Of a DNA stretch of 47,480 nt, positions 6,641 to 18,652 are shown piece after piece. Each line of letters begins with the position of its first letter. The first letter of the stretch is position 1. Location of the stretch: contig JAKABX010000005.1 in the NCBI GenBank assembly GCA_021796545.1, forward strand, positions 1 to 47,480, written 5' to 3'. The notes under the pieces were generated by a model. It was not told the DNA's origin. It saw only the letters and a program-made list of their open reading frames with translations, and searched no databases. Position numbers and translations under genes: made by a program. The DNA is from Actinomycetes bacterium. Lineage in GTDB: Bacteria > Actinomycetota > Acidimicrobiia > Acidimicrobiales > Bog-793.

Positions 6641-7175
6641 GGGGCGGAGACCGAGTGCGTCGGTAGCGTGATCTGCTCCTCGGGCAAGAGCCGGCACCGG
6701 CGGGACCCGATGTGATGGGGAGCCCGCCCGCGTCCCAAACGGGCGTGGCACCGTCACGGCGTCGGCCGCCTCGTCACCCCGCGGGGTCGATCGGCTCCTC
6801 GCCTCGGGTGAGCACGAGATGCCCGAGCACCGGCGCCCGGGAGTGAGCACTCGATCGACCGCAGGCGACTCCGTCGGCCCTCGCCGTCTCGCCAGAGCGC
6901 GCCTCTCGCCCATCGCCAAGATGACTTCGACCTCGACCGACACAGCACCGATCGACGGCCGCCAGGGCCCGACGAAGATGTGGACAGCCTGTCCGCGCGA
7001 GTCTGACCACCGTTGCCCACGTCAACGCAGCACGGGAGCAGACGGGAGTCCGCGGCCGCGTTGGGTGCCGACGCGAACTGTTTGCAGGGCGCTCTCCGGC
7101 AGCGGGACGAGGGGAAAGACCCGCGGTCCTACGATGCCCTGACGTGCCCCGAGCTCTCCCACGAGCACCCAGGCG
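6641..7175. other. Intergenic stretch without a supportable gene
   Basis: This stretch lies between the transposase remnant and the CDF-like gene. All three minus-strand frames are open for long distances but read Arg/Pro-rich shadow sequence with no recognisable motif. It may contain the eroded N-terminal part of the transposase. Nothing else is seen. Confidence 0.4.
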
Positions 7176-7793
7176 ATGACGCGTGCGGCGAGACTGTGGA
7201 CCGTCCTCGTCGCCAATCTCGCTCTGGTGGGAGCGTTGATCGGTGTCGGGGTGACGGCTCACTCGCTGGGGGTGTTGGCGGAGGGAGCCGACTACCTGGC
7301 CGATGCCGCCGCCATCGGCGTCGCGCTCTTGGCGATGCGCCTGGAGGCTCCCAGCGCGCGCCGCCCCGACGGCTCACCCAAAGCGACGCTCTATGCCGCC
7401 CTGGTCAACGCGGGCTGGCTTCTCCTGCTCACCGCCGGGGTCACCGCTGGAGCCCTCGACCGCCTCATCGCCGGCGTCCACCAGGTGCAGGGCCTCCCCG
7501 TGCTCGCCGTGAGCGCCGCGGCGGCGATGACCATGCTCGTCGGAGCGGTCCTGCTCGGCGCGGACCTTGACGCGGACGACGACTCGGGCGGCGGACTCAG
7601 CGTGCGGGCGGTCCTGCTCGACACCGCGGGCGATGCCGCGGCAGCCGCAGGCGTTGCTGGCGCCGGCGCCGTCATCTTCGCGACGGGAGGAAACTACTGG
7701 CTCGATCCGGCGGTCGCGCTGACGATCAGCGCCGTCGTCGGATTGCACGCTTTGCGCCTCATGGGCCGGGTCCGGGCGGCACTTCGCGCCTGA
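7176..7793 (+). CDS. Short cation diffusion facilitator-like membrane protein
   Basis: This 205-residue protein has about six hydrophobic segments and resembles the transmembrane domain of the cation diffusion facilitator (CDF) family of metal/proton antiporters. The second segment has the CDF-type DxxxD metal site (AEGADYLADAA) after SLGVL. A second acidic pair, LLDTAGDAAAAAG, sits where helix 5 supplies the other half of the site. The cytoplasmic C-terminal domain of typical CDF proteins (about 290 residues) is absent, so this is a short form. A hydrophilic DADDDSGGG loop falls where the His-rich loop of other members lies. The start ATG 7176 has no strong ribosome binding site. The substrate is unknown. 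It stands alone, with a GC-rich hairpin just downstream. Confidence 0.75.
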   Translation: MTRAARLWTVLVANLALVGALIGVGVTAHSLGVLAEGADYLADAAAIGVALLAMRLEAPSARRPDGSPKATLYAALVNAGWLLLLTAGVTAGALDRLIAGVHQVQGLPVLAVSAAAAMTMLVGAVLLGADLDADDDSGGGLSVRAVLLDTAGDAAAAAGVAGAGAVIFATGGNYWLDPAVALTISAVVGLHALRLMGRVRAALRA

Positions 7794-7823
7794 GCCGCCG
7801 ACACAGCGGAAGGGCCCCTCAGA

Positions 7824-7842
7824 GCCGCGGTCGCGCCGCGGC
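7824..7842 (+). terminator. GC hairpin downstream of the CDF-like gene
   Basis: A perfect 7-bp stem (GCCGCGG / CCGCGGC) with a 5-base loop lies 30 bp after the CDF-like stop codon. There is no T-tract, as is common for terminators in very GC-rich actinobacteria. It is a plausible transcription stop, but GC-rich palindromes are frequent in this genome. Confidence 0.3.
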
Positions 7843-8224
7843 GCCCGAGAGCCAGCGCCGCGGCACCCGCGACACCGCCTTTCTTATCCACCTGGACGAA
7901 GAAGGGTCATTCGCACTCGCAACACGCAAGGTGCGCGCGCCTCGCCACCGGGGTGCGCGACACCGGGCACGCCCGACCGTGCGGTCTTTGAAGCGAGAGC
8001 CGGTCTCTTCGCAGGCACCGAGGCACCGCGTCCTCCGTCCCAGACGGAGCGCCCACGCAGCACAACGGGCCGGCAGTGCGGCGTCCGCAGTGGACTCACC
8101 TCCGCTGACTTGCCCGGGTTGGACCCGAGTGCACGAGTTCGGACCCCTTGCCCTCGTGCGGGCCAGGACCAAGCGGGGGCCTGTCCGAGCGGACGGCCCG
8201 AGTTTCTCGGGCGGCGGAAGCGCC
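7843..8224. other. Long kdp upstream region with several perfect hairpins
   Basis: No gene is supportable here; the long minus-strand open frame is a shadow. The stretch holds perfect inverted repeats at 8033-8049 (CTCCGTC arms, CCA loop), 8183-8194 (GTCCG arms, AG centre) and 8196-8212 (GCCCGAG arms, TTT loop). These could be a structured leader RNA or chance GC-rich palindromes. I could not match it to the c-di-AMP (ydaO) riboswitch that controls kdp in some bacteria. Confidence 0.35.
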
Positions 8225-8271
8225 GTTGACGGGGTATTAACGCGCAGGAGCGGCGGTTGATGTCGCGTTGA
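8225..8271 (+). promoter_or_regulatory. Candidate kdp promoter and KdpE binding repeats
   Basis: The only AT-rich island before the kdp genes is GTTGACGGGGTATTAAC (8225-8241), which contains a -35-like TTGACG and a -10-like TATTAA. The pentamer GTTGA occurs at 8225, 8256 and 8267. The last two form a direct repeat with an 11-bp period (GTTGATGTCGCGTTGAGG), the spacing used by OmpR/PhoB-family regulators such as KdpE. The first copy is 31 bp upstream, about three helical turns. This is inference from spacing; no KdpE consensus for this lineage is known to me. Confidence 0.4.
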
Positions 8272-8295
8272 GGCCGCGGCCGCGACTGTGGGTCC

Positions 8296-8379
8296 ATGGC
8301 CGATGTGCTCGCCGTCCTCGGCATCGCCGCCTTCCTCCTCGCGATGCTCGGGCTGATCCGAGCGCTGGAGCGCGTATGA
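8296..8379 (+). CDS. 27-residue single-span membrane microprotein ahead of kdpF
   Basis: An ATG at 8296 opens a 27-codon frame with one hydrophobic helix (LAVLGIAAFLLAMLGLI) and a charged C-terminus (RALERV). Its stop overlaps the kdpF start (GTATGA), which indicates translational coupling and supports it being expressed. It is not KdpF itself: the canonical KdpF-like sequence with its EWF end is the next frame. Similar tiny single-helix frames ahead of kdpF are, as far as I recall, seen in other actinobacterial kdp operons but have no assigned function. A role as an additional KdpFABC-stabilising peptide is a guess. Confidence 0.65.
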   Translation: MADVLAVLGIAAFLLAMLGLIRALERV

Positions 8380-8465
8380 ACGCCACGGACGCGGTCCTGC
8401 TCGCGCTCTCGGCCGCGCTCTTCGTCTACCTCGGTGTCGCGCTGTTCAAGGCGGAGTGGTTCTAG
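8376..8465 (+). CDS. kdpF: KdpF, small subunit of the Kdp potassium ATPase
   Basis: This 29-residue single-helix peptide (MNATDAVLLALSAALFVYL, ending FKAEWF) matches the size and pattern of KdpF, which stabilises the KdpABC complex in the membrane and ends in an aromatic motif such as ERF or EWF. It overlaps the preceding microprotein by four bases, and its TAG stop directly abuts the GTG start of kdpA. It sits at the expected first position of the kdpFABC operon. Confidence 0.85.
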   Translation: MNATDAVLLALSAALFVYLGVALFKAEWF

Positions 8466-10160
8466 GTGCCCTACGCGCTCTTCCTGCTCGCGATGCTCGT
8501 CGTGCTTGCTTTGTGCTGGCGCTTTCTCGGCGCCTACATGGCCGCCGTCTACGAGGGCCGGACCGCCTGGCTCGCCTTCCTCGAGCGTCCCGTCTACCGC
8601 CTGTTGCGCCTCGACCCCGAGGTCGAGCAGTCCTGGCAGCGTTACGCGGGCGCGCTCGTCGCCTACTCGGCCGTCGCCATCGCCGTCGTCTACGGCATGC
8701 AGCGCCTCCAGGGCCATCTCTTCCTCGACCCCCAGCACCTCGGCGCGGTCTCGCCCGCGCTCGCATTCAACACCGCCGTCTCTTTCGTCACCAACACGAA
8801 CTGGCAGAACTACGCCGGCGAGACGACGATGTCTTACCTCACCCAGATGGGTGCGCTCGCCGTGCAGAACTTCGCGAGCGCGTCCGTGGGCATCGCGGTC
8901 GCCGTCGCGCTCATCCGCGGCTTCGCACGGCGCAGCTCGCCGACGATCGGCAACTTCTGGGTGGACCTCGTCCGAGGAGTCCTCTACATCCTGCTCCCCA
9001 TCTCGCTCGTCGCGGCGGTGGTCTTCGTCGGACAGGGCGCGCTGCAGACCTTCGCCGGCCCGGTGAGCGTCCACGACGCGCTGAACGGCGTCACCCAGGT
9101 CATCCCCCGCGGTCCCGTCGCCTCGCAAGAGGTGATCAAGCAGCTCGGCACCAACGGCGGTGGCTTCTTCAACGCAAACGGCGCGGACCCCTTCGAGAAT
9201 CCCACCGGGCTCACCAACTTCCTGTCGGCAGCGCTCATCCTCTCGATTCCGGTCTCGCTCACCTACACCTTCGGCAAGATGGTCGGCAACCTCCGCGAGG
9301 GCGTCGCGATCCTCGCGGTGATGGCGGTCCTGTTCGGCGGCTGGCTGGCCATCGCCAACACCGCGGAGCTCGGCGGCAACCCCGCGGTCGCGGCCGCCGG
9401 GATCGCGCACCAGGGCGGGGGGAACATGGAAGGCAAGGAGGTCCGCTTCGGTGTCGCGCAGTCGACCTTCTACGACGTCGCCTCCACCCAGACCTCCACC
9501 GGCAGCGTCGACGGCGCAAACGACTCCTACACGCCGATGGGCGGCTTCGCCCTCCTCACCGGGATGATGCTCGGCGAGGTCAGCCCCGGTGGCGTTGGCA
9601 GCGGTCTCTACACGATCCTGCTCTTCGCGATCGTCGCAGTGTTCATCGGCGGCCTCATGGTCGGGCGAACACCGGAGTACCTCGGTAAGAAGATCCAGGC
9701 GCGCGAGGTGAAGCTCGCCGCACTCGGCGTCCTCGTGATGCCGATCACCGTGCTCGTGCTCAGCGCGATCGCGGTCTCGCTCCCCGCCGGTCGCAGCGCC
9801 GCGCTCAACGGCGGACCGCACGGCTTCAGCGAGATCCTCTACGCGTTTACCTCGCAGGCCAACAACAACGGCTCGGCCTTCGCCGGGCTCTCGGGGAACA
9901 CCCCCTTCTACAACATCCTCGGCGGCCTCGCGATGCTCCTCGGTCGCTTCGCGATCATCGTCCCGACGCTCGCGCTCGCAGGCACCTTGGCTGCAAAGCC
10001 CGCGGTCGCCGCCTCGAGCGGCACGTTCCGCACGGACACGCCGCTTTACGCCGGCCTTCTGCTCGGCGTCATCCTCATCGTCGGCGCACTCACGTTCTTC
10101 CCGGCCGTCTCGCTCGGCCCAATCGTCGAGCAGCTCTCCCACGGGAGGTTCTTCTCGTGA
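8466..10160 (+). CDS. kdpA: Potassium-transporting ATPase subunit KdpA
   Basis: This 564-residue membrane protein is the K+-selective channel-like subunit of the KdpFABC ATPase, which takes up potassium at high affinity under limitation. It contains the four pore-loop repeats of the superfamily: [47 protein letters not shown] and [20 protein letters not shown]. About ten hydrophobic helices are present and the length is typical. The start is GTG 8466 directly after the kdpF stop. The last four bases (GTGA) overlap the kdpB start, so subunit synthesis is coupled. No truncation or loss of filter residues is seen. Confidence 0.97.
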
Positions 10161-12235
10161 GCCACCACGCCGTCCTCACCCCCGCCGCCGAGGCCGCCCC
10201 CACGCCCCGCGGCACACGGGGCGTCGTCAGCCGTCGGGGCCTGTTCGACCGTGAGATCGTCGTCCCCGCGCTCGGCGCCGCGGTGCGCAAGCTCGATCCC
10301 CGCATCCAGTTCCGCAACCCCGTGATGTTCGTCGTGCTCTGCGGCACGGTCGTGACCTTCGTCGAGTCGGTCGCACACCCGGGGCTGTTCGACTGGAGCG
10401 TCACGCTCTGGTTGCTGCTCACCGTCCTGTTCGCCAATTTCGCCGAGGCGGTCGCCGAGGGGCGGGGAAAGGCCCAGGCCGACGCCTTGCGCCAGATGCG
10501 CGCCGACACCACGGCGCGGCGTCTGTGCGAGGACGGCACCGAGGAGCGGGTCGCCTCGGCCGACCTGCGCCGGGGGGACCGCGTCGTCTGCGAGGCCGGC
10601 GATGTCATCCCCTCCGACGGTGAGATCGAACAGGGCGTCGCCTCCGTCGACGAGTCGGCGATCACCGGCGAGTCGGCGCCGGTGATCCGCGAGTCCGGGG
10701 GCGACCGCTCGGCAGTGACGGGCGGGACCCGCGTCCTCTCGGACCGGATCGTCGTCCGCATCACCGCCGAGCGCGGGCAGACCTTCCTCGACCGAATGAT
10801 CGGGCTCGTCGAGGGGGCGACGCGCCAGAAGACCCCGAACGAGATCGCGCTCTCGATCCTGCTCGCCGCGCTCACGATCGTCTTCCTGCCCGTCGTCGTG
10901 GCGCTCGAGCCCTTCGCCCGCGACGCGGGCACGACGGTGTCGATCGTGGTCCTGGTCTCGCTGCTCGTCTGTCTCATCCCGACGACGATCGGTGCGCTGC
11001 TCTCGGCGATCGGGATCGCGGGCATGGACCGCCTCGTCCAGCGCAACGTGCTCGCCATGTCCGGACGCGCGGTCGAGGCGGCGGGGGACGTCCAGACCCT
11101 TCTGCTCGACAAGACGGGGACGGTCACCCTCGGCAACCGGATGGCGTCGGCGTTCTGGCCGGTGGGCGGCCATGACGAACGCACGCTCGCGGACGGTGCG
11201 CAGCTCGCCTCGCTCGCGGACGAGACCCCCGAAGGGCGATCGATCGTCGTCCTCGCCAAGGAGCGCTTCAACCTGCGCGAGCGCGAGCTCGGTGCCGGCC
11301 ACGTCTTTGTCCCCTTCTCCGCCCAGACCCGCATGTCGGGCCTCGACGACGGTGCGCGCCGGATCCGCAAGGGCGCCGCCGACGCCGTCAAACAGTTCGT
11401 GCGCGCACAGCGCGGCGAGATCCCCACCGAGCTCGACCCGCTCGTCGAGCGGATCGCCCGGGCAGGCGCGACCCCCCTCGTCGTCGCCGACGGTGCGCGG
11501 GTCCTCGGTGTCATCGAGCTGAAAGACGTCGTGAAGACCGGGATCCGCGAGCGCTTCGACGAGATGCGCCGGATGGGCATCCGCACGGTGATGATCACGG
11601 GCGACAACCCGCTCACCGCGGCCGCCATCGCCGAGGAGGCCGGCGTGGACGACTTCCTCGCCGAGGCGACGCCCGAGGCGAAGATGGCACTGATCCGCAC
11701 CGAGCAGGAGGGCGGGAAGCTCGTCGCGATGACCGGCGACGGCACGAACGACGCCCCCGCTCTCGCGCAAGCCGACGTCGGTGTGGCGATGAACACCGGA
11801 ACGACCGCAGCCAAGGAAGCCGGCAACATGGTCGACCTCGACTCCAACCCCACCAAGCTCATCGACGTCGTCGAGATCGGCAAGCAGCTGCTCATCACGC
11901 GCGGTGCGCTCACGACCTTCTCCATCGCGAACGACGTCGCGAAGTACTTCGCGATCATTCCCGCGCTCTTTGTGACCGCCTATCCGCAGTTGCGCACCTT
12001 GAACATCATGGGTCTGCACAGCCCCACGTCTGCCGTGCTCTCCGCGGTCATCTTCAATGCGCTGATCATCGTTGCCCTGATCCCCCTGGCGTTGCGCGGC
12101 GTGCGCTTCCGCCCGATGAGCGCGGGCGCGATCCTGCGGAGGAACCTCCTCATCTTCGGCGTCGGGGGCATCATCCTGCCCTTCCTCGCCATCAAGCTCA
12201 TCGACCTCTTCCTCACCGCCGTCGGGTGGTACTGA
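10157..12235 (+). CDS. kdpB: Potassium-transporting ATPase ATP-binding subunit KdpB
   Basis: This 692-residue P-type ATPase is the energising subunit of KdpFABC. The phosphorylated aspartate is in [13 protein letters not shown] at about residue 318. The actuator-domain motif reads [19 protein letters not shown], and the TGES sequence carries the serine whose phosphorylation inhibits KdpB in E. coli. The hinge motif [18 protein letters not shown] and the membrane [13 protein letters not shown] segment are intact. The GTG start overlaps the kdpA stop, and the end overlaps the kdpC start (TGATG). All catalytic motifs look functional. Confidence 0.97.
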
Positions 12236-12783
12236 TGCTGACGCACCTGCGCCGCGCTGTGGTCGTCTCAATCGTGCTGTTCGTGCTCTGCGGCCTCGCC
12301 TACCCCGCGTTCGAGACCGGCGTCGCCCAGCTCCTCTTCCCCCACCAGGCGAACGGCTCGCTGACGAGGAACGGCTCGACACTCGCCGGCCAGGCCTTTT
12401 CGGCACCACGCTGGTTCACGGGCCGCCCCGAGCCGGTGGGTGCGAGTCCGGACGCCAGCGGCGCGGCCAACCTCGGCCCCCGCTCGTCGCTTCTCCTGAA
12501 GGACGTCCGGCGGACAGCCGCGCAGCTGCGCCGGGCCGGGATCACCCCGACCAACGACCTCGTGACGACGTCGGGGAGCGGCTTTGACCCCGACATCTCC
12601 CCGACGGACGCCGCGGCCGAGGCGCCCGCCGTCGCGCGCGCGAACCACCTGAGTCTGGCGGCCGTCCGCCGGATCATCGCGCAGAACACCACCGGGCGCG
12701 AGCTCGGCTTCCTCGGGTCGCCCCGCGTTAACGTCCTCCGGCTCAACGAGGCGCTCGCGCGCCTCGAACACCGGCCGCGATGA
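12235..12783 (+). CDS. kdpC: Potassium-transporting ATPase subunit KdpC
   Basis: This 182-residue protein has one N-terminal membrane helix (VVVSIVLFVLCGLAYPAF) and a periplasmic/exoplasmic domain. Family motifs include ANGSLT, GQAFSAPRWFTGRP, SGSGFDPDISP and LGFLGSPRVNVLRLN. KdpC is required for assembly and catalysis of KdpFABC. I chose ATG 12235, which overlaps the kdpB stop; a GTG nine bases upstream is less likely. The last four bases (ATGA) overlap the following OB-fold gene, so that gene appears to be part of the operon. Confidence 0.95.
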   Translation: MLTHLRRAVVVSIVLFVLCGLAYPAFETGVAQLLFPHQANGSLTRNGSTLAGQAFSAPRWFTGRPEPVGASPDASGAANLGPRSSLLLKDVRRTAAQLRRAGITPTNDLVTTSGSGFDPDISPTDAAAEAPAVARANHLSLAAVRRIIAQNTTGRELGFLGSPRVNVLRLNEALARLEHRPR

Positions 12784-13172
12784 CCACGCGCCGCGAGGGC
12801 TCTCGAGATGGCGGGCCCGACGCGCCTCGGCCGGAGCGAGCTCCCTTTGCGGACCCGCCGGCGTTCTTCTGGCCGACGCCCGTTGCGCTGCGCGAGGCCC
12901 GGGCGCGCCGGCGCGCCGCGTTCCGCGGTTCGGTATCTGAGACTGTCGTCCTGGACGGTCCGGGGCCGTGCTTTCGCGCCGTGCTCAACGACGGAACGGG
13001 CGAGCTCGCCCTCGTCTTCCTCGGGCGCGAGGCGGTGCCGGGCATCGTCGAGGGCGCGCAGCTCGAGGTCGAGGGGATGGTCGGGCGGTTCCGCGCGGAG
13101 CCGGCGATCCTCAACCCCCGCTACCGCTTCACCGGCGCGCCGCGGCGGACTCAGCCCGACACGAGCTGGTAG
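12780..13172 (+). CDS. OB-fold nucleic-acid-binding-like protein in the kdp operon
   Basis: This 130-residue protein has a single OB-fold-like domain in its second half (FRGSVSETVVLDGPG, LNDGTGELALVFLGR, AVPGIVEGAQLEVEGMVGRF, ILNPRYRF). It matches the small actinobacterial OB-fold proteins often found near potassium-transport genes. The N-terminal 35 residues are charged and Pro-rich and probably disordered. Its start overlaps the kdpC stop (ATGA), which implies co-translation with the potassium pump. Its 3' end overlaps the convergent kdpE gene by 22 bp. A nucleic-acid or nucleotide ligand is possible, but the function is unknown. Confidence 0.8.
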   Translation: MTTRREGSRDGGPDAPRPERAPFADPPAFFWPTPVALREARARRRAAFRGSVSETVVLDGPGPCFRAVLNDGTGELALVFLGREAVPGIVEGAQLEVEGMVGRFRAEPAILNPRYRFTGAPRRTQPDTSW

Positions 13173-13846
13173 CCGATGCCCGGGTGCGTGCGCAGGATCC
13201 GGCCGTCCTCGTCACCGAGCTTGCGGCGCAGTCGGTGGGAGTAGACGCGCAGGTAGTGCGTCTCCTGCTGGTACTGGGGCCCCCAGACCTCCCGCAGGAT
13301 CATGTGGTGGGTGCAGACCTTTCCCGCGTGGCGTGCGAGGAAGGAGAGCAGGTCGAACTCGCGCGCCGTCAAGTCGAGTACCTGCCCGGCACGCGTCGCC
13401 TGGTGGTGAACGAGGTCGACCGACAGGTCGCCGACCGTGATCTCGGTCGGTGCCTCGGGGACGTGGCGTCGAGCGTGGCGCAGGGCGACGCGAAGGCGCG
13501 CCTCGAGCTCGGGCATCGAGAAGGGCTTGGTCACGTAGTCGTCGGCGCCGCCGTCGAGCGCGGCGACCTTGGCCGTGTCGTCGCCGGCTGCCGAGAGCAC
13601 CAGGATCGGCACGTCGGAGAAACCGCGGATGCGCCGGCAGACCTCGATGCCGTCGAGGTCCGGGAGACCGAGGTCCAACACGACCACGTCGGGCCGGGCG
13701 AGCGCCGCCTGGACGACGCCCTCCTCGCCGGTGCGCGCGAGGCTCAGCGCGTAGCCGCGCGCCTCGAGGCCGATCGACAGCGCACGGCGCAGCGCGGGAT
13801 CGTCGTCGACGACGAGCACACGCGCCCCGTCGGTGCCAGGGCTCAC
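13151..13846 (-). CDS. kdpE: KdpE response regulator
   Basis: This 231-residue OmpR-family regulator has a receiver domain with the acidic pocket in VLVVDDDPALR, the phospho-acceptor aspartate in VVVLDLGLPDLDG, and the lysine in YVTKPFS. The C-terminal winged-helix domain (LTAREFDLLSFLARHAGK, THYLRVYSHRLRRKLGDE) matches KdpE closely, including the KVCTHHMILREVWG block. KdpE activates kdpFABC transcription in response to potassium limitation. The GTG start lies directly after the stop codon of the sensor kinase gene (TAG then GTG), so the kinase and regulator form one operon. It converges on the kdp structural operon. Confidence 0.95.
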   Translation of the reverse strand: MSPGTDGARVLVVDDDPALRRALSIGLEARGYALSLARTGEEGVVQAALARPDVVVLDLGLPDLDGIEVCRRIRGFSDVPILVLSAAGDDTAKVAALDGGADDYVTKPFSMPELEARLRVALRHARRHVPEAPTEITVGDLSVDLVHHQATRAGQVLDLTAREFDLLSFLARHAGKVCTHHMILREVWGPQYQQETHYLRVYSHRLRRKLGDEDGRILRTHPGIGYQLVSG

Positions 13847-15475
13847 CTACGCCTCCCCGGGTTGGCCCGCGAGGTCGTCACGGCGCGACGCACCCTCATC
13901 GGGCGGCAGGGTCCTGACGCGCGCGACCGGCAGGGCGAAGGAGAACGTCGCCCCCCCGCCCGGCGCGTCGGCGACGCGCACCGCCTCGCCGTGCGCTTCG
14001 AGGAACGCCTTGACGATCGCAAGACCGAGCCCCGCCCGACCCCCGCCGCCCACGCGGTTGAACATGAGGAAGATCCTCTCGCGCTCCTCAGGCGCGATCC
14101 CCGGACCGTGGTCGGTCACCGAGATCTCGACGCGGTCCGCGTCGCGGCGCGCGCCGATCTCGACGGTCCCGGCGTCGGGGGCATGGAGCATCGCGTTCTC
14201 GACGAGGTTCGCAAGCGCCTCGGCGAGGAGCGCGTGGTCCCCGTCCACGGGGGGCAGCTCGGGGTCGAGCCGCCGCAGCACCCGCCCCTCGATCCCGCTT
14301 CCGGTCAGCATGGCGAGCGCTTCGTCGACGAGCTCGTCGACGCTCAGCACGCCACGGCGCGCCACCAGGGCGCCGCTTTGGATCCGCGTCATGTCGAGCA
14401 GGTTCGTCACGAGCCGCGCGAGGCGGTCCGACTGCATCTCGACGAGCGCGAGGAGCTCGTCGCGGTTCGCGTCGCTGAGCGGGACGTCGGAGCGGCGCAG
14501 GTCCGACACCGCGGCCTTCACGCTGGCGAGCGGCGTGCGCAGATCGTGGGAGACCGCGCCGACGAGGGCGGAGCGCCAGCGGTCGGCCTGCTCGAGCAGC
14601 TCGGTGCGCAGCGCCTGCTCGTGCAGCGCGGCGCGCTCGACCGCGAGAGCAGCCTGAGTGGCATAGACGTGCAGAAATTCGCGCCCCTCGGGATCCAGAC
14701 GGTGGCCGCGGGCGACGAGCGCACCGAGCGGGCGTCCCGTCGCGACGAGCGGGACGGTGAGCAGCCAGTCCTCGGCGGCGCCGCCGGGCCGGGCGGGAGC
14801 GCTCACGAGGCTCGAAACCGCGCCCCCGCTCGGCATTGCCGCGGCGAGCTCGGCCGGCGTCAACGTCTCCCCCGCGGCCGCGGCTGGGCTGTCGGCACGG
14901 CCCTCGCCTCCCGCACCGACGAGCAGCAGCGCGACCGCCGAGAAGCCGAACGCGGCCTGGACCGTCGCGACGATGCTCGAAAGGAGCTCCCCTTGGGGTT
15001 TGTCCGCGATGAGCAGGTCCGAGAGCGCGAGCAGCCGTCGTGTCGCGGCCGCCCGCGCCGTGATCTCCCGCCGGGCGGCGTGGAGACGCTCGACGACCTG
15101 GGTGACCACGAGCATCACGGCCGCGTAGACGCCGAGGGCGACCCAGTTCTGTGTGGCGCCCACGTTCAGGGTCCCATAGGGCGGGATGAAGAAGAAGTCG
15201 TAGGCCAGGAAGCCGAGCGCGACGGCGACGACGCCCGCGGAGATGCCGCCAGCGACGACGGCGAGAACCACCGGCACGACGAGCACGAGCGCGCTCGTGG
15301 CCACAGCGAGGCTGGCACGCAGCGGCACCATCACGGCGGTCAGGACCGCGATCGTGGCGACGGCGACAAGGACCCCCGCCAACGCCCGGCGCAGGCCGGC
15401 GCGGCGGGCGCTGGGGACGGGAGCGGCAAGCAACGGTGCGATCCTAGGGACGTTTCCCGCGAGGGGAGGTGACAA
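13847..15475 (-). CDS. KdpD C-terminal half: membrane sensor histidine kinase
   Basis: The protein matches only the second half of KdpD. From the N-terminus it has four short helices of the DUF4118/KdpD transmembrane domain (LGFLAYDFFFIPPYGTLNV is the signature), a GAF-like domain, a HisKA domain with the phospho-accepting histidine in VGAVSHDLRTPLASVKAAV, and a HATPase domain (NLVENAMLHAP, DHGPGIAP, GLGLAIVKAFLEAHG). The first half of KdpD (KdpD and USP domains) is missing here but is encoded by the divergent gene that starts two bases away. The reading frame extends to a TTG at 15475, but a second TTG at 15433 leaves room for a promoter and is a better start. It is co-transcribed with kdpE. 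Confidence 0.92.
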   Translation of the reverse strand: MSPPLAGNVPRIAPLLAAPVPSARRAGLRRALAGVLVAVATIAVLTAVMVPLRASLAVATSALVLVVPVVLAVVAGGISAGVVAVALGFLAYDFFFIPPYGTLNVGATQNWVALGVYAAVMLVVTQVVERLHAARREITARAAATRRLLALSDLLIADKPQGELLSSIVATVQAAFGFSAVALLLVGAGGEGRADSPAAAAGETLTPAELAAAMPSGGAVSSLVSAPARPGGAAEDWLLTVPLVATGRPLGALVARGHRLDPEGREFLHVYATQAALAVERAALHEQALRTELLEQADRWRSALVGAVSHDLRTPLASVKAAVSDLRRSDVPLSDANRDELLALVEMQSDRLARLVTNLLDMTRIQSGALVARRGVLSVDELVDEALAMLTGSGIEGRVLRRLDPELPPVDGDHALLAEALANLVENAMLHAPDAGTVEIGARRDADRVEISVTDHGPGIAPEERERIFLMFNRVGGGGRAGLGLAIVKAFLEAHGEAVRVADAPGGGATFSFALPVARVRTLPPDEGASRRDDLAGQPGEA

Positions 15476-15476
15476 G

Positions 15477-16637
15477 ATGACCAGAGCGGGTGAGGCTGAC
15501 GACAGGGACCCCCGCGCCGGGATCGCCGAGGCTGTCGCGCCCGCCGGCCGCTTCCGCCTCTACCTCGGCGCCGCGGCGGGCGTCGGCAAGACGGTTGCCA
15601 TGCTCGACGAGGGGCGCCGGCGCGCCGTGCGCGGGAGCGACGTCGTCGTCGGCTTCGTCGAGACCCACGGCCGGCCCCACACCGCCGAAGCCCTCGACGG
15701 GCTCGAGGTCGTCGCGCGCAAGGTCGTCAGCTATCGAGGCGCGCTCTTTGAGGAGATGGACGCCGACGCGGTGCTCGCGCGCCGACCCGAGGTCGTGCTC
15801 GTCGACGAGCTCGCGCACACCAACGTCCCCGGGTCGGGCCGGCACCCCAAGCGCTACGAGGACGTCCTGGACTTCCTCGCGGCGGGGATCTCGGTAATTT
15901 CAACCTGTAACGTGCAACATCTAGAGAGTATCGCGGACGCCGTCGAGGAGATCACGGGCGTCGCCGTGCGCGAGCGCGTCCCCGATTGGGTGGTGCGGGC
16001 GGCGGATCAGATCGAGCTGGTCGACTCCTCACCCGAGCAGCTGCGCCGCCGAATGCTGCACGGCAACATCTACCCGCCGGCAAAGGTGCCCGACGCGCTC
16101 GCCGGGTTCTTCCGCCAGGAGAACCTCACCGCGTTGCGCGAGCTCGCGCTGCGCTTCGTCGCCGACGAGACCGAGGAGGAGCTGCTCGCCTTCCTCAGCG
16201 CGCACCGGGTGGCGCACGTCTGGGAGACGACCGAGCGCCTCATGGTGGCCGTCACGGGCGCGCCCGACAGCGGAGGCGTGGTGCGCCGCGCCGCGCGCAT
16301 GGCGGCGCGGACAAAGGCGGAGCTGCATGCGGTCCACGTGAGCTCCGACGAGGCAAGGACCGACCCGGCGGCACTGGCGCAGGCGCGCCAGGTCTCAGAG
16401 GACGTCGGCGCGTCGTGGCACGAGATCACGGCCGACGATCCCGCACGGGGCCTCGTCCGCTTCGCCGCCGAACACCAGGTGACTCAGATCGTCCTCGGCT
16501 CGTCGCGCCGCAGCCGCATCCAGGAGCTCGCTCGCGGCTCGGTCGTCGCGCGCGTGCTGCGCTACGCGGCAGCCGAAGGGGTCGACGTCCACGTCATCGC
16601 GCGCCGCCACCAGCCACCACGCGCCGAGGAGCGCTAA
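15477..16637 (+). CDS. kdpD: KdpD N-terminal half: KdpD sensor domain plus USP domain
   Basis: This 386-residue soluble protein equals the cytoplasmic N-terminal half of KdpD. The KdpD domain has the Walker-type sequence YLGAAAGVGKTVAMLDEG, GFVETHGRP, VDELAHTNVPGS and ISTCNVQHLESI. A universal-stress-protein domain follows (LMVAVTGAPDSGGVVRRAAR, IVLGSSRRSRI). In whole KdpD this half binds c-di-AMP or nucleotide and tunes the kinase. It ends with RAEER and a stop; no membrane or kinase part follows. The ATG at 15477 has a strong GAGGGGAGG ribosome binding site. The kinase half lies head-to-head on the opposite strand, so the two halves must be made separately and presumably associate. Confidence 0.93.
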   Translation: MTRAGEADDRDPRAGIAEAVAPAGRFRLYLGAAAGVGKTVAMLDEGRRRAVRGSDVVVGFVETHGRPHTAEALDGLEVVARKVVSYRGALFEEMDADAVLARRPEVVLVDELAHTNVPGSGRHPKRYEDVLDFLAAGISVISTCNVQHLESIADAVEEITGVAVRERVPDWVVRAADQIELVDSSPEQLRRRMLHGNIYPPAKVPDALAGFFRQENLTALRELALRFVADETEEELLAFLSAHRVAHVWETTERLMVAVTGAPDSGGVVRRAARMAARTKAELHAVHVSSDEARTDPAALAQARQVSEDVGASWHEITADDPARGLVRFAAEHQVTQIVLGSSRRSRIQELARGSVVARVLRYAAAEGVDVHVIARRHQPPRAEER

Positions 16638-16702
16638 GCGTGGCCCTCTGGTACCCGGGCAGCCGGCAGAGCAGAGTACGCCGAGAGAGAGAAAGAGGGG
16701 GG

Positions 16703-17647
16703 ATGAGCCCGTCGGGACGGACCCGCGCCGCGCTGCCCATCGTCGCCGTGCACGGCGGTGCCGGTGCGAGCTTCGCCCGCCGCGACGATCCCGTGGCACT
16801 CGGCGGGGTCGCCGCGCTGGGGGAGGCCCTCCGGCGCGCAGCCGGAATCCTCGGCGCGGGGAAGAGCGCGCTCGACGCCGTGGTCGAGGCGGTTCGCGTC
16901 CTCGAGGACGCCGAGGAGTTGAACGCCGGGCGCGGCGCGGCGCTCACCGAGGACGGAACGGCCGAGTGCAGCGCCGCGGTCGCCGACGGCGCCCGGCGCG
17001 GCCACGGTGCCGTGGCGCTCACCACGACGGTGCGCAACCCCGTCGAACTCGCGTACCGCATTCTCGCGGAGGGTCGCCACGTCCTGATGGCGGGGCCAGC
17101 CGCCGACGCGCTCGCCGAGTCCTTCGGGCTGGCGAGGGTCGCGCCGGAGTACTTCCTCACCCCCCGGCGCCTCGCCGCGCTGGGCCGGGGTGGCAGCGGG
17201 AACCATGAGCCCCGGGGGACCGTGGGTGCGGTCGCCCGCGACAGCGCGGGCCACCTCGCGGCGGCGACCTCCACCGGCGGCATCACCGCACAGCGCGCGG
17301 GGCGCGTGGGCGACTCACCGATCCCCGGTGCAGGGACCTTCGCCGACGACACGACCTGCGCCGTGTCGGCCACCGGGGACGGCGAGGCCTTCCTGCGCGC
17401 CGGTTTCGCACACGAGGTGCACGCGCGCCTCGCCTACACGGGCGCAACGCTGGCCGAAGCCTGCGCCGCCGCGCTGGCGAGCGTCGCGGCTCTTGGGGGA
17501 AGCGGCGGATGCGCGGCCCTCGACGCCGAGGGCCGGGTGGTCCTGGCCTTCACGACGCCGGCGATGTTTCGCGGCTGGTGCGTGCCCGGCGGCGAGCCCG
17601 TCGCCGGCGTCTTCCCTGGCGAGGTGCCCGATCCGCCGCCGGCCTGA
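16703..17647 (+). CDS. Isoaspartyl peptidase / type 2 L-asparaginase
   Basis: This 314-residue protein is an N-terminal nucleophile (Ntn) hydrolase of the isoaspartyl peptidase/plant-type asparaginase family. These enzymes cut themselves before a threonine and then hydrolyse beta-aspartyl dipeptides or asparagine. The N-terminal VAVHGGAGA and ELNAGRGAALTEDGTAECSA are family signatures. The autocleavage site is in HEPRGTVGAVARD, with threonine as the new N-terminus. GRVGDSPIPGAGTFAD and SATGDGEAFLR supply the substrate-binding loops. I chose ATG 16703, which follows a purine-rich AAAGAGGGGG ribosome binding site. It follows the KdpD N-half by 65 bp but has no obvious functional link to it. Confidence 0.9.
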   Translation: MSPSGRTRAALPIVAVHGGAGASFARRDDPVALGGVAALGEALRRAAGILGAGKSALDAVVEAVRVLEDAEELNAGRGAALTEDGTAECSAAVADGARRGHGAVALTTTVRNPVELAYRILAEGRHVLMAGPAADALAESFGLARVAPEYFLTPRRLAALGRGGSGNHEPRGTVGAVARDSAGHLAAATSTGGITAQRAGRVGDSPIPGAGTFADDTTCAVSATGDGEAFLRAGFAHEVHARLAYTGATLAEACAAALASVAALGGSGGCAALDAEGRVVLAFTTPAMFRGWCVPGGEPVAGVFPGEVPDPPPA

Positions 17648-17720
17648 GCGATCGCCGCGCGCCCCGCGGCGGCCCGGCACGCGCCGGTAGGGTCGCGAAG
17701 GAGGCGAGAAGGGGACGGCC

Positions 17721-18305
17721 GTGGTGCACTGGCTGCTCTGTGACTACGGCGGCGTCCTCTCGCTGCCCCAGGACCCCACGGCGCTCGCGCGTGTCGCGGC
17801 TCTTGTGGAACGTCCCGTGGACGACCTGACCGCCGCCTACTGGCGCCACCGCCTCCCCTACGACCGGGGGGAGGTGACCGCAGCGCAGTACTGGGCCGCG
17901 GTCGTCGGCGCGACCCAACGGGCAGAAGTCGTCTCCCGGTTGGTCGCGCTCGACGTCGCCTCGTGGACGCGGCCGAACCGCCCCGTGCTCGCGGCGGCGC
18001 GGGCCGCGCGCCGCGCGGGGATCTCGGTCGCCGTGCTCTCGAACGCGCCCGCGGAGATCGCGCGTGCGCTGGACCGTCTGCGGTGGATGGCCGGGTTCTC
18101 CCCGCGCCTTTTCAGCTGCGACCTCCGGCTCGCGAAGCCCGACGCGGCGATCTTCGCCACGGCCCTCACGGCGCTCGGCGCCACGCCCGCGGAGGTCGTC
18201 TTCGTCGACGACCGCGAGGAGAACGTCACCGCCGCCCGCGCGGTAGGCCTCGACGCGCGCCGCTTCTGCGGCCCGGAGGACCTCGGCGCGCTCGCGCTCT
18301 CCTGA
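17721..18305 (+). CDS. HAD-superfamily hydrolase (subfamily IA)
   Basis: This 194-residue protein is a haloacid-dehalogenase-like phosphatase. Motif I is CDYGGVLS near the N-terminus, with glycine where the second aspartate usually sits, so catalysis may be altered or the protein may not be a phosphatase. Motif II is SVAVLSNAPA, motif III the lysine in LRLAKPDAAIF, and motif IV VVFVDDREENVTAA. An alpha-helical cap lies between motifs I and II. It starts at GTG 17721, the first of two consecutive valine codons. It lies 73 bp after the asparaginase gene and may be co-transcribed. The substrate cannot be predicted. Confidence 0.85.
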   Translation: MVHWLLCDYGGVLSLPQDPTALARVAALVERPVDDLTAAYWRHRLPYDRGEVTAAQYWAAVVGATQRAEVVSRLVALDVASWTRPNRPVLAAARAARRAGISVAVLSNAPAEIARALDRLRWMAGFSPRLFSCDLRLAKPDAAIFATALTALGATPAEVVFVDDREENVTAARAVGLDARRFCGPEDLGALALS

Positions 18306-18400
18306 GTTCCCGCCGACGCGCGGTGATGCGTACTTGTACTCAACAACCGCTAGGCTCGCGGGTGATCCGACCAAAGGGGGGAGAGAGACCGGGAGACGAC

Positions 18401-18652
18401 ATGGACGCGATGGTGGTCTTGGCCGTGGCGGCGGCGCTGTTCGCCGCCATCGAGCTGGCGGCGATGACCGGGCTGTTCGCCGCGGCGGCCGGTGAGCGGG
18501 TGGAGCGCTGCGCTCGCTGTCACCACATGGGGGTGACAAGCGGCGGGGTCGTCCACCGGGAGGGGTGTCCGCACCGTCTCGGTCTGCACCTGTCCGGGAG
18601 CCACGGAGGTCTCCACCCCGGCGGAACGGCCGGCCTCGGTCATCAGTCGTAA
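18401..18652 (+). CDS. Small membrane protein with a Cys/His-rich tail
   Basis: This 83-residue frame begins with one hydrophobic helix (VVLAVAAALFAAIELAAM), followed by ERCARCHHMGVTS and REGCPHRLGLHLSG. The CxxC-HH-C-H arrangement could bind zinc or another metal. A GGGGGAGAGAG purine stretch precedes the ATG at 18401. It ends 10 bp inside the convergent end of imuB. I do not recognise a family. The hydrophobic start, clustered Cys/His residues and good ribosome binding site argue that it is real. Confidence 0.6.
   Translation: MDAMVVLAVAAALFAAIELAAMTGLFAAAAGERVERCARCHHMGVTSGGVVHREGCPHRLGLHLSGSHGGLHPGGTAGLGHQS

What the first reader, a model, noticed from the sequence alone, without database searches (positions are those of the whole stretch)
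13847..16637. KdpD split into two head-to-head genes
Normal KdpD is one chain: KdpD domain, USP domain, membrane domain, GAF, kinase. Here the KdpD+USP half (15477-16637, plus strand) and the membrane+kinase half (13847-about 15433/15475, minus strand) are separate genes that start back to back and run apart. The cut falls exactly between the USP and DUF4118 membrane domains. The kinase half is co-transcribed with kdpE, while the ligand-binding half has its own promoter and a strong ribosome binding site. This would allow the sensor half to be dosed independently of the kinase and perhaps to serve other partners.
Basis: partly seen in the sequence, partly recalled or inferred. Interest (0 to 1): 0.7.

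Follow-up and report, generated by a model that had tools for sequence, protein, structure and literature searches.

The report
Two-gene version of potassium sensor KdpD
In this uncultured actinobacterium the potassium regulator KdpD, usually one long protein, is made as two separate proteins from back-to-back genes, a layout shared by dozens of related genomes and of a type already described in other bacterial phyla.

Summary
The N half (KdpD domain + Usp, 15477-16637, +) and the C half (DUF4118 membrane domain + GAF + histidine kinase, 13847 to most likely 15433, -) start 43 bp apart and together cover residues 14-380 and 395-888 of the 895-position KdpD model. The window's genome, an incomplete Acidimicrobiales bin, holds one copy of each and no full-length KdpD. 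It is not an assembly fault: about 50 of 87 non-redundant relatives show the same head-to-head layout, including a cultured strain and a one-contig genome. Split N halves form one supported clade and split C halves another, each sister to actinobacterial full-length KdpD.

The kind is already known. Silberberg et al. 2024 showed that the N domain is a serine kinase that inhibits the pump subunit KdpB, and reported species with the two kinases on separate chains. The catalytic residues are intact here, and KdpB keeps its target TGES. Most likely the N half is a pump brake (Usp-gated, perhaps by c-di-AMP) and the C half is the transcriptional sensor paired with KdpE. New here are the lineage, the conserved divergent layout, and a conserved OB-fold gene after kdpC that is fused to the N half in five relatives.

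The parts
15477..16637 (+). KdpD N half: KdpD serine-kinase domain + Usp domain (386 aa), P0002
   Evidence: Pfam PF02702, PF00582; NCBIfam NF038185/NF007793 14-380; model matches PDB 2r8r and 7ji4
13847..15433 (-). KdpD C half: DUF4118 membrane domain + GAF + HisKA + HATPase_c (528 aa from TTG 15433; the longest frame begins at TTG 15475)
   Evidence: Pfam; NF007793 395-888; start by conserved -10-like box and spacing
15441..15446 (-). TAGGAT, -10-like box 7 nt upstream of the C-half start
   Evidence: TANNNT facing the C half in 55 of 57 gaps vs 24 expected; leaderless-type spacing in 27 of 57 vs 1.7 expected
15462..15469 (+). Shine-Dalgarno AGGGGAGG of the N half
   Evidence: direct reading
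13151..13846 (-). kdpE response regulator, abutting the C half
   Evidence: Response_reg + Trans_reg_C; best NCBIfam match is KdpE, below that model's cut-off
8466..10160 (+). kdpA
   Evidence: PF03814, TIGR00680 over cut-off
10157..12235 (+). kdpB, with the TGES serine that E. coli KdpD phosphorylates
   Evidence: TIGR01497 over cut-off; TGES in 103 of 103 KdpB
12226..12783 (+). kdpC
   Evidence: PF02669
12780..13172 (+). small OB-fold-like protein, start overlapping the kdpC stop; fused in frame to the N half in five relatives
   Evidence: weak PF01336; conserved after kdpC in split loci, fused in L053, L079, L082, L085, L093

Best explanation
This is a two-chain KdpD. The soluble N half is an atypical serine kinase that can phosphorylate the TGES serine of KdpB and shut the KdpABC pump off when potassium is plentiful, gated by its Usp domain (perhaps through c-di-AMP). 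The membrane C half is the potassium-responsive histidine kinase/phosphatase that acts on KdpE to control kdp transcription. Because the genes diverge, the pump brake and the transcriptional sensor are made from separate transcripts; the C half is made with KdpE, probably from a leaderless mRNA. Shown here: the two chains, their intact catalytic residues, one shared ancestry per half, co-occurrence with each other and the pump, and a promoter signature for the C half. Inferred from published homologues: serine-kinase action on KdpB, c-di-AMP gating, and the C half's signalling to KdpE.
For: Walker A GKT and Walker B Asp in 87/87 split N halves, Walker B Glu in 86/87, Arg190 in 87/87. KdpB TGES in 103/103 loci. 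Phosphoacceptor His in 72/72 split C halves. Split N halves form one clade (86 rows, 99*), split C halves one clade (72 rows, 100*), and acidimicrobial split-locus KdpBs one clade (100*, with one full-length locus inside). Of 36 genomes with only short KdpD, 35 have a DUF4118 protein (17 of 127 without KdpD do) and 35 have KdpA (3 of 127). Split published with the same domain sets; isolated N domain phosphorylates KdpB; a short Deinococcus form is stimulated by c-di-AMP (PMC11018627). Own genome has a diadenylate cyclase domain. N-half model matches KdpD N domain 2r8r and c-di-AMP-bound KdpD Usp 7ji4.
Against: No biochemistry for any acidimicrobial protein. The Trp39 position (adenine contact in E. 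coli) is Val here and Cys or Val in 58 of 87. 8 of 36 short-only genomes show no diadenylate cyclase, about the same fraction as full-length genomes, so c-di-AMP gating is not specially tied to the split. The N-half model is only of moderate confidence (mean pLDDT 71).
Confidence: 0.75

Rival explanations
1. The two halves bind each other and work as one reassembled KdpD, the N half tuning kinase/phosphatase balance of the C half, with the split only changing dosage. It is not exclusive of the serine-kinase role.
For: Two-chain complementation in E. coli KdpD is known by title (Heermann 2000, cited in PMC3610689; the paper itself was not read). The halves co-occur and their genes are often adjacent.
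Against: 20 of 87 N halves sit behind kdpC rather than beside the C-half gene and 9 have no kdp gene in the fetched stretch. L223 keeps a split C half with no standalone N half.
Confidence: 0.35
2. The N half is a general Usp-type signalling protein with partners outside Kdp.
For: A distant N-half paralogue occurs in G069, in which no KdpA was found, near FtsH and PPK2-like genes by inspection.
Against: 35 of 36 short-only genomes have KdpA; the window's N half belongs to the main clade, not to that paralogue.
Confidence: 0.1
3. Assembly inversion or a recently broken, decaying gene.
For: The own genome is an incomplete bin in many contigs.
Against: Same layout in about 50 non-redundant loci, a cultured strain and a one-contig genome; open frames and conserved catalytic residues.
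Confidence: 0.01

Closest known systems
Two-chain KdpD (KdpD/Usp serine kinase + TM/GAF/DHpCA histidine kinase), Silberberg et al. 2024, PMC11018627
   Same: Same two domain sets on two chains, same cut site, serine-kinase and histidine-kinase residues kept
   Different: The paper names Acidobacteriota and Chloroflexota as the commonest; its main text does not mention Actinomycetota by that name. For D. radiodurans, Anabaena and Alicyclobacillus it describes the serine-kinase chain downstream of the pump; here it is head to head with the histidine kinase gene
Deinococcus radiodurans kdpD-N with separate SK/RR operon, PMC5716572
   Same: Standalone KdpD-Usp chain; separate kinase/regulator genes on the opposite strand
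   Different: There the N chain is the last gene of the pump operon, and the separate kinase is annotated as a HAMP-domain kinase and gave no match to the DUF4118/GAF profiles used here
E. coli KdpD (full length)
   Same: All domains present between the two chains; homologous over 14-380 and 395-888 of the model
   Different: One chain in E. coli
NCBIfam NF038185 KdpD_non_kinase (KdpD-like non-kinase potassium sensor)
   Same: Best NCBIfam match of the N half, nearly the whole length
   Different: Score 364 vs cut-off 550

Membership tests
Two-chain (split) KdpD | KdpD + Usp domains on one chain without kinase core | tested here: met
Two-chain (split) KdpD | TM (DUF4118) + GAF + DHp/CA on a second chain | tested here: met
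   (GAF weak)
Two-chain (split) KdpD | Walker A (G-X5-GKT), Walker B DE and Arg190 of the serine kinase | tested here: met
   position 39 is Val, not aromatic
Two-chain (split) KdpD | Phosphoacceptor His (H673) in the histidine kinase chain | tested here: met
Two-chain (split) KdpD | KdpB TGES target serine in the genome | tested here: met
Two-chain (split) KdpD | Serine-kinase activity on KdpB | not testable with these tools
   needs biochemistry
c-di-AMP-gated short KdpD | Diadenylate cyclase in the genome | tested here: met
c-di-AMP-gated short KdpD | c-di-AMP binding by the Usp domain | tested here: inconclusive
   fold matches 7ji4; the S. aureus-type motif, recalled from memory, is not evident in the window or in D. 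radiodurans
Full-length KdpD | Single chain over the NCBIfam cut-off | tested here: not met
NF038185 KdpD_non_kinase | Score over the curated cut-off of 550 | tested here: not met
   363.6 bits

The most novel reading that the evidence does not exclude
In Acidimicrobiales the KdpD serine kinase has become a separate pump-regulating module that includes a small OB-fold protein encoded just after kdpC and fused to the N half in one subgroup, so that the pump brake has its own input, independent of the histidine kinase.
Probability: 0.2. Interest if true: 0.6.

Novelty: new member of a known kind. Interest (0 to 1): 0.35.

Why it matters
One order holds both full-length and split KdpD, so it suits a test of whether the tandem serine/histidine kinase arose by fusion, as Silberberg et al. 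propose, or was broken apart. Here the data reject a single clade of all full-length N domains (p 0.0002) but do not reject one for C domains, so the direction stays open. A natural split also lets the pump brake and the transcriptional sensor be deleted separately, which in E. coli needs point mutants or truncations.

Tried and rejected
Assembly inversion or decay: rejected by conservation. C-half start at 15475: less likely than 15433. Sigma-70 promoter and terminator scan of 12700-16800: nothing found. Rfam scan of 7000-18500: nothing found. TANNNT facing the N half: not enriched (23 vs 22.7 expected); a CACAAT-like box just before the N start occurs in some relatives (ACAAT in 16 of 57 gaps vs 2.6 expected) but not in the window. 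Diadenylate cyclase tied to the split: no difference from full-length genomes. Four paper searches for split or acidimicrobial KdpD found no report of this lineage's layout, in an open-licence library only. The careful N tree did not finish; the quick tree with the mixture model was used.

Full report
The observation. The frames and domains are as described. 15477-16637 (+) encodes a 386-aa protein with the KdpD domain (PF02702, E 2.7e-89) and a Usp domain; 13847-15475 (-) encodes DUF4118, a weak GAF, HisKA and HATPase_c. On the 895-position NCBI KdpD model the halves cover 14-380 and 395-888. The C half abuts kdpE (13151-13846). kdpA, kdpB and kdpC lie at 8466-12783 on the plus strand, with KdpA and KdpB over curated cut-offs. 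The own genome (68% complete, 120 contigs) has one PF02702 and one DUF4118 match, both in the window.

Start sites. Reading the gap, the N half begins at ATG 15477 with AGGGGAGG 7 nt upstream. For the C half the best start is TTG 15433: TAGGAT stands 7 nt before it, and the same box and spacing precede the GTG start in L034 and L035. Across 57 distinct head-to-head gaps, a TANNNT box facing the C half occurs in 55 (expected 24.2, sd 3.0), and one at 4-10 nt before an in-frame start in 27 (expected 1.7). This suggests a leaderless transcript for many C halves. No such enrichment exists for the N half, although a CACAAT-like box precedes the N start in a subset of relatives. The window's N-half promoter was not identified.

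Conservation. In 198 genomes of the order, 71 have a KdpD domain over cut-off: 36 only short, 28 only full length, 6 both, and one decayed copy (classes assigned). The named relatives found by sequence are Acidimicrobiaceae/Acidimicrobiales and unclassified Actinomycetes bins, plus the cultured Acidithrix ferrooxidans and Acidiferrimicrobium sp.. After removing near-copies, 87 split N loci remain: 49 are head to head with the C half within the distance used, plus L037 with a wider gap; 20 lie behind kdpC; 9 have no kdp gene in the stretch fetched. G032 is a one-contig genome with one N half and one DUF4118 protein, head to head (L150).

Ancestry. In the N tree 86 acidimicrobial split N halves form one clade (99*), next to actinobacterial full-length N domains. 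In the C tree 72 split C halves form one clade (100*), next to actinobacterial full-length C domains. KdpBs of acidimicrobial split loci form one clade (100*), with one full-length locus, L223, inside it. In the window's own family, genus g4 (G116, G147) has full-length KdpD that groups with other full-length forms in both trees, and its KdpB lies outside the split clade, so the whole system was probably exchanged there. The data reject one clade of all full-length N domains (p 0.0002) but not of all full-length C domains (p 0.65). Whether full-length arose by fusion or the split by fission is not settled here.

Residues. Numbering follows E. coli. Gly36-Lys37-Thr38, Asp109 and Arg190 are present in 87 of 87 split N halves and Glu110 in 86 of 87; full-length proteins vary more at Glu110 (31 of 37) and His113 (31 of 37). 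Position 39, Trp in E. coli, is Val in the window and Cys or Val in 58 of 87. The phosphoacceptor His is present in 72 of 72 split C halves, and KdpB carries TGES in 103 of 103 loci. The N-half model (mean pLDDT 71) matches the KdpD N domain 2r8r and the c-di-AMP-bound KdpD Usp domain 7ji4. The C-half model has mean pLDDT 79 and long helices through the DUF4118 region.

Co-occurrence. Of 36 short-only genomes 35 have a DUF4118 match (17 of 127 without KdpD), 35 have KdpA (3 of 127) and 28 have a diadenylate cyclase domain; the last fraction is about that of full-length genomes (22 of 28). The window's genome has a diadenylate cyclase domain.

What is known. Silberberg et al. 2024 (PMC11018627) showed that E. 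coli KdpD is a tandem serine and histidine kinase; that its N domain alone phosphorylates KdpB Ser162; that some species carry the two activities on separate chains, most often KdpD/Usp plus TM/GAF/DHpCA, commonest in Acidobacteriota and Chloroflexota; and that a short Deinococcus geothermalis form is stimulated by c-di-AMP. Dani et al. 2017 (PMC5716572) described a truncated kdpD-N in D. radiodurans with kinase and regulator in an opposite operon. NCBI curates a model for standalone N halves (NF038185). The finding is therefore a member of a known kind. What I did not find described is the acidimicrobial clade and its head-to-head layout, and the search for that was limited to open-licence papers.

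An additional part. The ORF 12780-13172, whose start overlaps the kdpC stop, encodes a small protein with a sub-threshold OB-fold match. Relatives of it follow kdpC in at least 28 of 84 split kdpC genes counted strictly and in 0 of 24 full-length ones; the looser scan adds several loci. In L053, L079, L082, L085 and L093 (the last a named Acidiferrimicrobium record) it is fused in frame ahead of the KdpD-Usp half. In one actinobacterial genome a relative follows full-length kdpD-kdpE and precedes a DUF3159 gene (L228). The fusion suggests a link to the serine-kinase half; its role is unknown.

Verdict. Real, conserved, functional-looking two-chain KdpD; known kind, new lineage and layout.

Noticed in passing
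12780-13172 (+): Small OB-fold-like gene overlapping the kdpC stop, conserved after kdpC in split loci and fused to the KdpD N half in five relatives (L053, L079, L082, L085, L093).
   Followed up: partly
L152:6275-7447; L126:103-1245; L120:8878-9948: A second, divergent N-half paralogue with intact Walker motifs; in G069 (97% complete) no KdpA was found, so it may have a target other than the Kdp pump.
   Followed up: partly
L223: Full-length KdpD-KdpE beside a split-type kdpABC and split C half; only one KdpD domain in that genome, so the full-length protein may have replaced the standalone N half.
   Followed up: partly
L245:4743-5822: Standalone N half that groups with full-length KdpD (sister L221) although its C half is of the split clade.
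   Followed up: no
L062, L074, L081, L127, L131, L135, L141: Full-length KdpD and KdpE followed by an extra standalone N half; no pump gene was detected in these stretches, and in G039 the pump is on another contig.
   Followed up: no
L238:5774-8462: KdpD domain and the rest of KdpD lie in two overlapping frames, as after a frameshift.
   Followed up: no
G082 (C49:91063-91636; C83): KdpD domain in pieces with stop codons and KdpA with stops: a decaying kdp system.
   Followed up: no
L255 (NZ_CP134663.1): A 4.9-Mb E. coli record labelled as a plasmid carries kdpABCDE; it looks like a mislabelled chromosome.
   Followed up: no
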